From NCBI RefSeq assembly GCF_023008545.1, contig NZ_CP095397.1:1116001-1180000 (forward strand): a DNA stretch of 64,000 bases, given 5' to 3'. Shown here in pieces: positions 46,734-47,054 of this stretch (positions are counted from its first letter, which is position 1; every line of letters begins with the position of its first letter). The DNA is from Natribaculum luteum. GTDB lineage: Archaea; Halobacteriota; Halobacteria; Halobacteriales; Natrialbaceae. Made by a program: the position numbers and the translations under genes. The notes below the pieces were generated by a model. That model ran no database searches. It saw only the letters and a list, made by a program, of their open reading frames with translations, and was not told the DNA's origin.

Positions 46734-46807
46734 GGGCCGGTAGCTCAGTCCGGCAGAGCGTCTGGCTTTTAACCAGACGGTCGCGTGTTCAAATCGCGCC
46801 CGGCCCG
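46734..46807 (+). tRNA. tRNA-Lys (UUU)
   Basis: A complete 74-nt cloverleaf: acceptor GGGCCGG pairs with CCGGCCC, the anticodon stem TCTGG/CCAGA closes a CTTTTAA loop with anticodon TTT, and the T arm is GCGTG-TTCAAAT-CGCGC. A CGTTTAACC box at about 46699 is the likely promoter. The 3' end is copied twice downstream. Confidence 0.95.
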
Positions 46808-47054
46808 CTTTTGCCACGAACATTTTCATGAGGAGCAAAGCGGCCAGCGTGATTTGAACGCAAGGAACAGCTTTGCTTCGACCGTGTGTTCAAATCGCGC
46901 CCGGCCTGCTTTTGCCACGAACAACTTCGTGAGTGGCAAAACGGTCACGAGCGGTTTGAAGTAGACGAGTCACAGCCCGGGAAGCGAACGTAGTGAGCGA
47001 CCCGGAATGTCTCGGCGTAGTTCAAATCGCGCCCGGCCTGCTTTTGCCACGAAC
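46785..47054. repeat. three direct copies of the tRNA-Lys 3' end
   Basis: Copy 1 is in the tRNA (46785-46821). Copy 2 at 46886-46922 matches it over 37 nt with one change. Copy 3 at 47021-47054 matches over 34 nt. All include the T loop TTCAAATC, the acceptor strand and the downstream CTTTTGCCACGAAC. After copy 2 a hairpin forms with arms TTTTGCCAC and GTGGCAAAA; degraded forms follow copies 1 and 3. Such partial tRNA repeats are typical of att-site scars left by integrase elements. No integrase gene remains. Confidence 0.7.

What the first reader, a model, noticed from the sequence alone, without database searches (positions are those of the whole stretch)
46734..47054. Two extra tRNA-Lys 3' ends downstream of the intact tRNA
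The last part of the tRNA plus 14 downstream bases occurs three times in direct order, spaced 101 and 135 nt, with a hairpin after each copy in better or worse shape. Integrases of archaeal viruses and plasmids use tRNA 3' ends as attB and leave such duplications. The tiny spacers suggest two old integration events that excised or decayed almost fully. An alternative is local duplication of the tRNA terminator unit.
Basis: partly seen in the sequence, partly recalled or inferred. Interest (0 to 1): 0.6.

Follow-up and report, generated by a model that had tools for sequence, protein, structure and literature searches.

The report
Hairpin cassettes copying tRNA gene ends
The two extra tRNA-Lys ends belong to a family of ~80-160-base non-coding hairpin cassettes, found only in salt-loving archaea (Halobacteria) in the genomes searched, that sit behind about half the tRNA genes and carry both a direct and a mirror-image copy of the end of whichever gene they follow, apparently by site-specific recombination.

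Summary
In detail: three direct copies of the tRNA-Lys 3' end (starts 46787, 46888, 47020; spacing 101 and 132, not 135). The reading as two decayed proviral integrations is not the best one. Each copy closes a unit: hairpin H, an inverted copy of the T-loop, a conserved imperfect hairpin loop L, then a direct copy of the 3' end. The same two-unit composite follows the other tRNA-Lys gene. 24 of 51 tRNA genes here carry such units, over many isotypes, with boxes matching the local tRNA. The L hairpin covaries, and one class occurs in 297 of 341 Halobacteria genomes but in no other Halobacteriota genome searched. Units are gained or lost precisely: a filled and an empty tRNA-Lys site occur within one genus, and units occupy the 3' end of a protein gene in a few species while most relatives are empty. 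There the stop codon comes from the unit and the original end is displaced outward, the signature of integration inside the core. Best explanation: gene-less hairpin cassettes inserted and amplified by recombination at T-arm-like cores; the enzyme is unknown. A real 36-kb provirus at tRNA-Lys in a relative looks different and lies upstream of an older unit. I found no earlier description.

The parts
46734..46807 (+). tRNA-Lys(TTT) gene; core copy 1 = 46787-46805 (T-loop to acceptor 3' end)
   Evidence: ARAGORN; Rfam RF00005; pattern
46807..46841 (+). H hairpin of unit A (imperfect; CGAAC..ATGAG)
46849..46858 (+). inverted T-loop box of unit A (GTGATTTGAA), pairs with core copy 2
   Evidence: (I2, I3)
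46859..46887 (+). L loop of unit A, class L1 (cgcaaggaacagctttgcttcgaccgtgt)
   Evidence: CM R1 hit at G000:C1:1162849-1162898 (E 1.3e-9)
46888..46906 (+). core copy 2 (direct copy of tRNA-Lys 3' end), closes unit A
46908..46942 (+). H hairpin of unit B (TTTTGCCACGAACAACTTCGTGAGTGGCAAAA)
   Evidence: -14.3 kcal/mol, z -3.66
46951..46960 (+). inverted T-loop box of unit B (GCGGTTTGAA; one G.U to core)
46961..47019 (+). L loop of unit B, class L2 (gtagacgagtcacagcccggg..ccggaatgtctcggcgta)
   Evidence: nearly identical to the copy after tRNA-Lys(CTT) in L007
47020..47038 (+). core copy 3, closes unit B
47039..47066 (+). truncated third H (start of a lost or decayed unit)

Best explanation
The region is a two-unit array (plus a truncated third) of a gene-less cassette, roughly 80-160 nt long, that recombines at T-arm-like sites (core starting GTTCRA). 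One unit reads: H hairpin, inverted copy of the target's T-loop, L hairpin loop, direct copy of the target's 3' end. A unit enters inside the core. The upstream half of the gene is joined to the unit's own copy of the 3' end, so the tRNA or reading frame stays intact, and the original 3' end is pushed to the far side, where it is the next core. Repetition gives tandem arrays; core-to-core or box-to-box recombination removes units. Shown: the anatomy, its tracking of the host gene, covariation, distribution, and precise filled/empty sites. Inferred: insertion is conservative site-specific recombination by a tyrosine-recombinase-like enzyme supplied in trans, with the folded box-L-core hairpin as recognition element. 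How the box and core become matched to a new target is not resolved. Growth and loss of arrays may need only homologous recombination between repeats.
For: Same composite at both tRNA-Lys genes of the genome, 85% over 333 bp, ending at core 3, flanks unrelated. 24 of 51 own tRNAs carry units; expectation for an 18-mer with up to 3 mismatches in 700 nt is about 2e-4 per tRNA (arithmetic). 135 units over 25 isoacceptors: the best box matches the core at >=9 of 10 bases in 105, against mostly 6 and at most 8 for shuffled cores. L inner stems covary (GC10/CG8/AU6 at one pair), beating shuffles and slid controls; the H motif follows 95 of 194 tRNAs against 1 of 194 at +500. Class L1 in 297/341 Halobacteria genomes; 29 of 30 best hits follow a tRNA (70). 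Filled/empty tRNA-Lys(TTT) site in one genus as one clean core-to-core indel. Protein-gene 3' end: 3, 1 and 3 units in G107, G109 and G035, remnant in G097, empty in most other orthologues read, with the outermost core continuing into a flank resembling the empty site. Four identical 111-bp units behind tRNA-Lys in G154.
Against: No recombinase is linked to the units; none of 14 PF00589 matches in the genome is tied to them. Two patterns (L1, L2) are absent from IMG/VR contigs (38, 39), so no virus or plasmid carrier was seen. A unit carrying another tRNA's 3' end would break the tRNA, so spread between tRNAs needs a further step that was not observed. Conservation at the same tRNA over many genera would also fit a maintained function. 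Precise loss can be repeat-mediated deletion, known in haloarchaea (PMC3119063); which state is ancestral in the G050/G053 pair is unknown.
Confidence: 0.58

Rival explanations
1. Conserved functional trailer: the unit is transcribed behind the tRNA, and its sense-strand hairpins act in termination, 3' processing or tRNA quality control; selection keeps the box paired with the core.
For: The sense strand folds much better than the antisense strand (unit B z -3.45 vs -0.21; L1 -7.07 vs -4.65). A U.G pair in L1 is conserved (21 of 29 sequences). The same tRNA often keeps a unit across genera. Class-wide spread (69).
Against: Half of the tRNAs do without it; copy number runs from 0 to 4; units also sit behind a protein gene in some species and not others; tandem identical copies look like amplification.
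Confidence: 0.2
2. Two old provirus or plasmid integrations whose payload was lost.
For: Direct repeats of a tRNA 3' end; genuine proviruses use tRNA-Lys in this family.
Against: The spacers are conserved, structured and shared between tRNA-Lys, Ser, Gly, Glu, Leu, Arg, Trp and others. The provirus att in G044 has no H or L of its own and lies upstream of a unit. No integrase fragment at the locus.
Confidence: 0.06
3. No dedicated enzyme: units arise and spread by replication slippage or template switching at palindromes plus repeat-mediated recombination and gene conversion.
For: T-arms are palindromic; box-to-box fusion in tRNA-Gly(GCC) of this genome relative to G001; repeat-mediated deletions described in Haloquadratum (PMC3119063).
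Against: The same 26-nt L1 sequence stands behind tRNAs of many isotypes and a protein gene (33, 51, 70); slippage cannot bring a foreign conserved sequence to a new site.
Confidence: 0.1
4. Single-stranded transposition by an IS200/IS605-type (HUH) transposase or RAYT-like enzyme acting on the hairpins, as for REP or PATE elements.
For: Hairpins with conserved unpaired positions; such non-autonomous elements abound in haloarchaea (PMC3119063).
Against: PATEs cause no target duplication, whereas here ~20 bp of target are directly duplicated and the target is a defined T-arm-like site. No tested link to a transposase.
Confidence: 0.06

Closest known systems
tRNA-integrated elements with tyrosine integrases (archaeal proviruses and plasmids; review PMC8371274; tycheposons named in PMC10872708)
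   Same: Use the tRNA 3' end as core, duplicate it, restore the gene, leave precise empty sites, can lie in tandem
   Different: No gene, no integrase, ~100 nt; core starts at the T-loop; carries an inverted copy of the target and a conserved hairpin; one L class serves many tRNAs
Integron cassette arrays and attC-only arrays (attC: PMC2727003)
   Same: Tandem cassettes each ending in a folded imperfect hairpin that contains the exchange site; structure conserved more than sequence
   Different: No IntI linked; site is GTTCRA rather than GTTRRRY (consensus recalled from memory); sense strand folds best while attC uses the bottom strand; units too short for a usual cassette gene; carrier gene is a tRNA
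Haloarchaeal PATEs and SMRs (Haloquadratum, PMC3119063)
   Same: Short, gene-less, palindromic or with inverted repeats, mobile or recently mobile in Halobacteria
   Different: PATE/SMR insert without target duplication, SMR-A mostly into other mobile elements; no tRNA association in the passages read
REP/BIME palindromic repeats (from memory)
   Same: Short hairpin repeats behind genes, in clusters
   Different: No copy of the host gene's end; other taxa; RAYT link untested here

Membership tests
Integrase-borne tRNA-integrated element | Direct repeat identical to the tRNA 3' end on both sides | tested here: met
Integrase-borne tRNA-integrated element | Own integrase gene and payload | tested here: not met
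   101- and 132-nt spacings without room for a gene; nearest PF00589 hit ~146 kb away
Integrase-borne tRNA-integrated element | Precise empty site in a relative | tested here: met
   G050 vs G053; protein gene
Integron / attC array | attC: bottom strand is the folded substrate | tested here: not met
   sense strand folds better, (prediction only)
Integron / attC array | Cognate IntI acting on the sites | not tested
   no IntI model was run on the genome; the G044 provirus integrase scores far below the IntI cut-off (20.7 vs 265 bits)
PATE / IS605-derived element | No target duplication | tested here: not met
   ~18-20 bp of target duplicated directly
PATE / IS605-derived element | Near-terminal palindromes shared with an IS605-type transposon | not tested
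   no IS605-type element was compared
Known RNA family (Rfam) | Match to a curated family | tested here: not met
   only tRNA and rRNA at gathering threshold in the window

The most novel reading that the evidence does not exclude
A class-wide recombination system of Halobacteria in which a host enzyme recognises folded hairpins and T-arm-like DNA, and inserts, rewrites and amplifies gene-less cassettes behind tRNA genes (and some protein genes), matching each cassette's direct and inverted ends to its new host gene: an archaeal integron-like mechanism built on tRNA T-arms.
Probability: 0.3. Interest if true: 0.9.

Novelty: new variant of a known kind. Interest (0 to 1): 0.7.

Why it matters
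tRNA 3' ends are the classic landing sites of mobile elements, yet here about half of a genome's tRNA genes are followed by a structured, gene-less cassette that has kept its form across a whole class of archaea. It implies an undescribed recombination activity or an undescribed tRNA-trailer function in haloarchaea, may explain some 'partial tRNA' annotations, and confounds searches for proviral att sites. Haloarchaea are genetically tractable, so both options can be tested directly.

Tried and rejected
Decayed integrase at the locus: none. Units as ends of a larger autonomous element: among the listed tRNA-Lys cores of 125 family genomes the only long span I noticed was G044's 36 kb, whose ends carry no H or L; the list was cut off, so this is not exhaustive. 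A viral reservoir: two IMG/VR pattern scans empty; phage collection no match, plasmid collection only a megaplasmid with an intron-bearing tRNA-Glu and unit, and a short tRNA match. Strand test by G.T versus A.C mismatches in the box: undecided, 25 to 25, so strand preference rests on fold energies only. Orphan tRNA-Glu-like 3' end at C1:870684 beside two integrases: ordinary att, no unit. Literature: ten searches gave no description of such units; subscription journals and preprints are not covered.

Full report
OBSERVATION. The window comes from a haloarchaeon of the genus Natribaculum: the only other genome offered for the genus has the contig length of Natribaculum breve TRM20010. Behind the intact tRNA-Lys(TTT), 46734-46807, the 19-mer GTTCAAATCGCGCCCGGCC recurs at 46888 and 47020. 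Spacing is 101 and 132. The three copies agree in 34 of 35 bases.

ANATOMY. Each spacer has a plan: a hairpin H, then an inverted copy of the T-loop (box), then a loop region L, then the next direct copy (core). Box and core pair, so box-L-core folds as one long imperfect hairpin (-28.4 and -37.9 kcal/mol as RNA, z -4.8 and -4.4). Unit A is 46806-46906, unit B 46907-47038, and a truncated third H follows (47039-47066).

NOT LOCAL. A two-mismatch search of the genome found exactly three more cores, behind the other tRNA-Lys gene (CTT), again in a three-copy array with spacing 107 and 132. The two loci match at 85% over 333 bp and part company at the third core. Scanning all tRNA genes of the genome, 24 of 51 have at least one direct copy of their own 3' end 76-143 nt downstream. 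By arithmetic about 0.01 would be expected in all. tRNA-Ala genes, several Leu, Pro, Tyr, Arg and Ser genes, Cys, and the cluster on contig 2 have none.

TRACKING THE HOST GENE. Over 135 units behind 25 isoacceptors, the best inverted box matches the core in at least 9 of 10 bases in 105 cases; with shuffled cores the usual best is 6 and the maximum 8. The box follows the tRNA even where the T-loop is unusual (GAATTGAA behind tRNA-Gly(CCC)). The box was chosen by complementarity, but L was not. Yet L inner stems covary: in the AGAC..GGCGT class one pair is GC 10, CG 8, AU 6; in class L1 one pair is CG 16, GC 10. Covariation scores exceed all 500 shuffles and all slid controls (shuffles do not correct for relatedness). 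H carries C-GA-R-C..G-Y-GA-G in the first 45 nt behind 95 of 194 tRNAs against 1 of 194 at +500, and R-Y is 89 Watson-Crick to 6 not.

DISTRIBUTION. The L1 pattern with box and core gave 34 contigs, all Halobacteria, in public genomes. A covariance model of L1 matched 297 of 341 Halobacteria genomes, 76 of 81 genera. In a phylum sample of 295, 45 genomes matched, all of them from the window's own order; none of the other Halobacteriota did. Of the 30 best class hits, 29 follow a tRNA by 31-230 nt, in four families, and the thirtieth follows a protein gene. Other L classes were not surveyed this way.

MOBILITY. (1) tRNA-Lys(TTT) of two species of one genus: G050 has one unit, G053 none, and the alignment shows a single core-to-core indel with continuous flanks. 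Direction is unknown. (2) The 3' end of a gene for a 119-aa protein (weak OB-fold match below cut-off) reads ..CGGTTCGAACCGGTCTGA, a T-arm-like palindrome. G107 carries three L1 units there, G109 one, G035 three near-identical ones with its own local core version, G097 a remnant; G028 has one behind a paralogue; most other orthologues read are empty. In G107 the gene now ends in TGA supplied by the unit, and the outermost core runs into a flank that resembles the empty-site flank of G098. So insertion took place inside the core and displaced the old end. That is how integrases restore a tRNA, and it argues against a simple insertion behind a terminator. (3) Arrays: four identical 111-bp units in G154. 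(4) Loss: tRNA-Gly(GCC) of this genome shows a box-to-box fusion relative to G001, which has an L1 and an L2 unit.

TRUE INTEGRATIONS LOOK DIFFERENT. In G044 two tRNA-Lys cores lie 36 kb apart and enclose a tailed-virus-like provirus (a large tape-measure-like protein, named by eye; a 340-aa integrase with PF00589). Its right end is followed by a normal H-box-L1-core unit, so the provirus entered the tRNA in front of an existing unit. The orphan tRNA-Glu-like site beside two integrases at C1:870684 also includes the 5' T-stem, which units lack.

MECHANISM. I favour gene-less cassettes recombining at T-arm-like cores. Shown: units, host tracking, structure, precise presence/absence, insertion inside the core in the protein-gene case. 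Inferred: a trans-acting tyrosine-recombinase-like enzyme, recognition of the folded hairpin, and the strand. The sense strand folds better, but the mismatch test of strand preference was undecided (25 G.T, 25 A.C). Unexplained: how a cassette acquires a box and core matched to a new gene. Array growth and loss may need only homologous recombination; repeat-mediated deletion is described in Haloquadratum (PMC3119063).

NOVELTY. No Rfam match, and no description in the searched open literature. It works like a tRNA-integrated element and resembles attC cassettes in layout (PMC2727003), but fails defining features of each (see membership test). I file it as a new variant of site-specifically recombining, non-autonomous repeats, with a minority chance that it is a distinct mechanism.

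Noticed in passing
L138:17250-17750 (G044 provirus right end): The provirus attR core is split: GACGGTCGCGTGTT, then ~55 nt of nested palindromes, then AATCGCGCCCGGCC, as if a palindromic sequence had entered the T-loop inside the viral att.
   Followed up: no
L103:980-1290 (Natronorubrum texcoconense), L141, L145, L200: L1 units in tandem behind a protein gene, with the stop codon inside the repeated core.
   Followed up: yes
G000:C1:868131-870703: Two adjacent integrase genes beside an orphan tRNA-Glu-like 3' end (T-arm included), no tRNA gene there.
   Followed up: partly
G000:C2:681274-683007: Cluster of about six tRNA-like genes on the second replicon, some low-scoring, none with units; looks virus- or plasmid-borne.
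   Followed up: no
G000:C1:2598835-2606255: Integrase-like genes start ~400 nt behind tRNA-Ala(GGC), which has no unit: a likely ordinary integrated element.
   Followed up: no
window 45722-46534: DUF7119 gene directly upstream of tRNA-Lys(TTT) (PF23433); what looks like the same gene end precedes the tRNA in G044 (L139), so the neighbourhood seems conserved.
   Followed up: partly
Lys-type L2 units in many genomes: Outer core copies often carry one extra base in the T-loop (GTTCAYAATC), at the same place in many species.
   Followed up: no
window 47417-48541 (-): Predicted protein with a tandem GGNETD repeat; no Pfam match.
   Followed up: no
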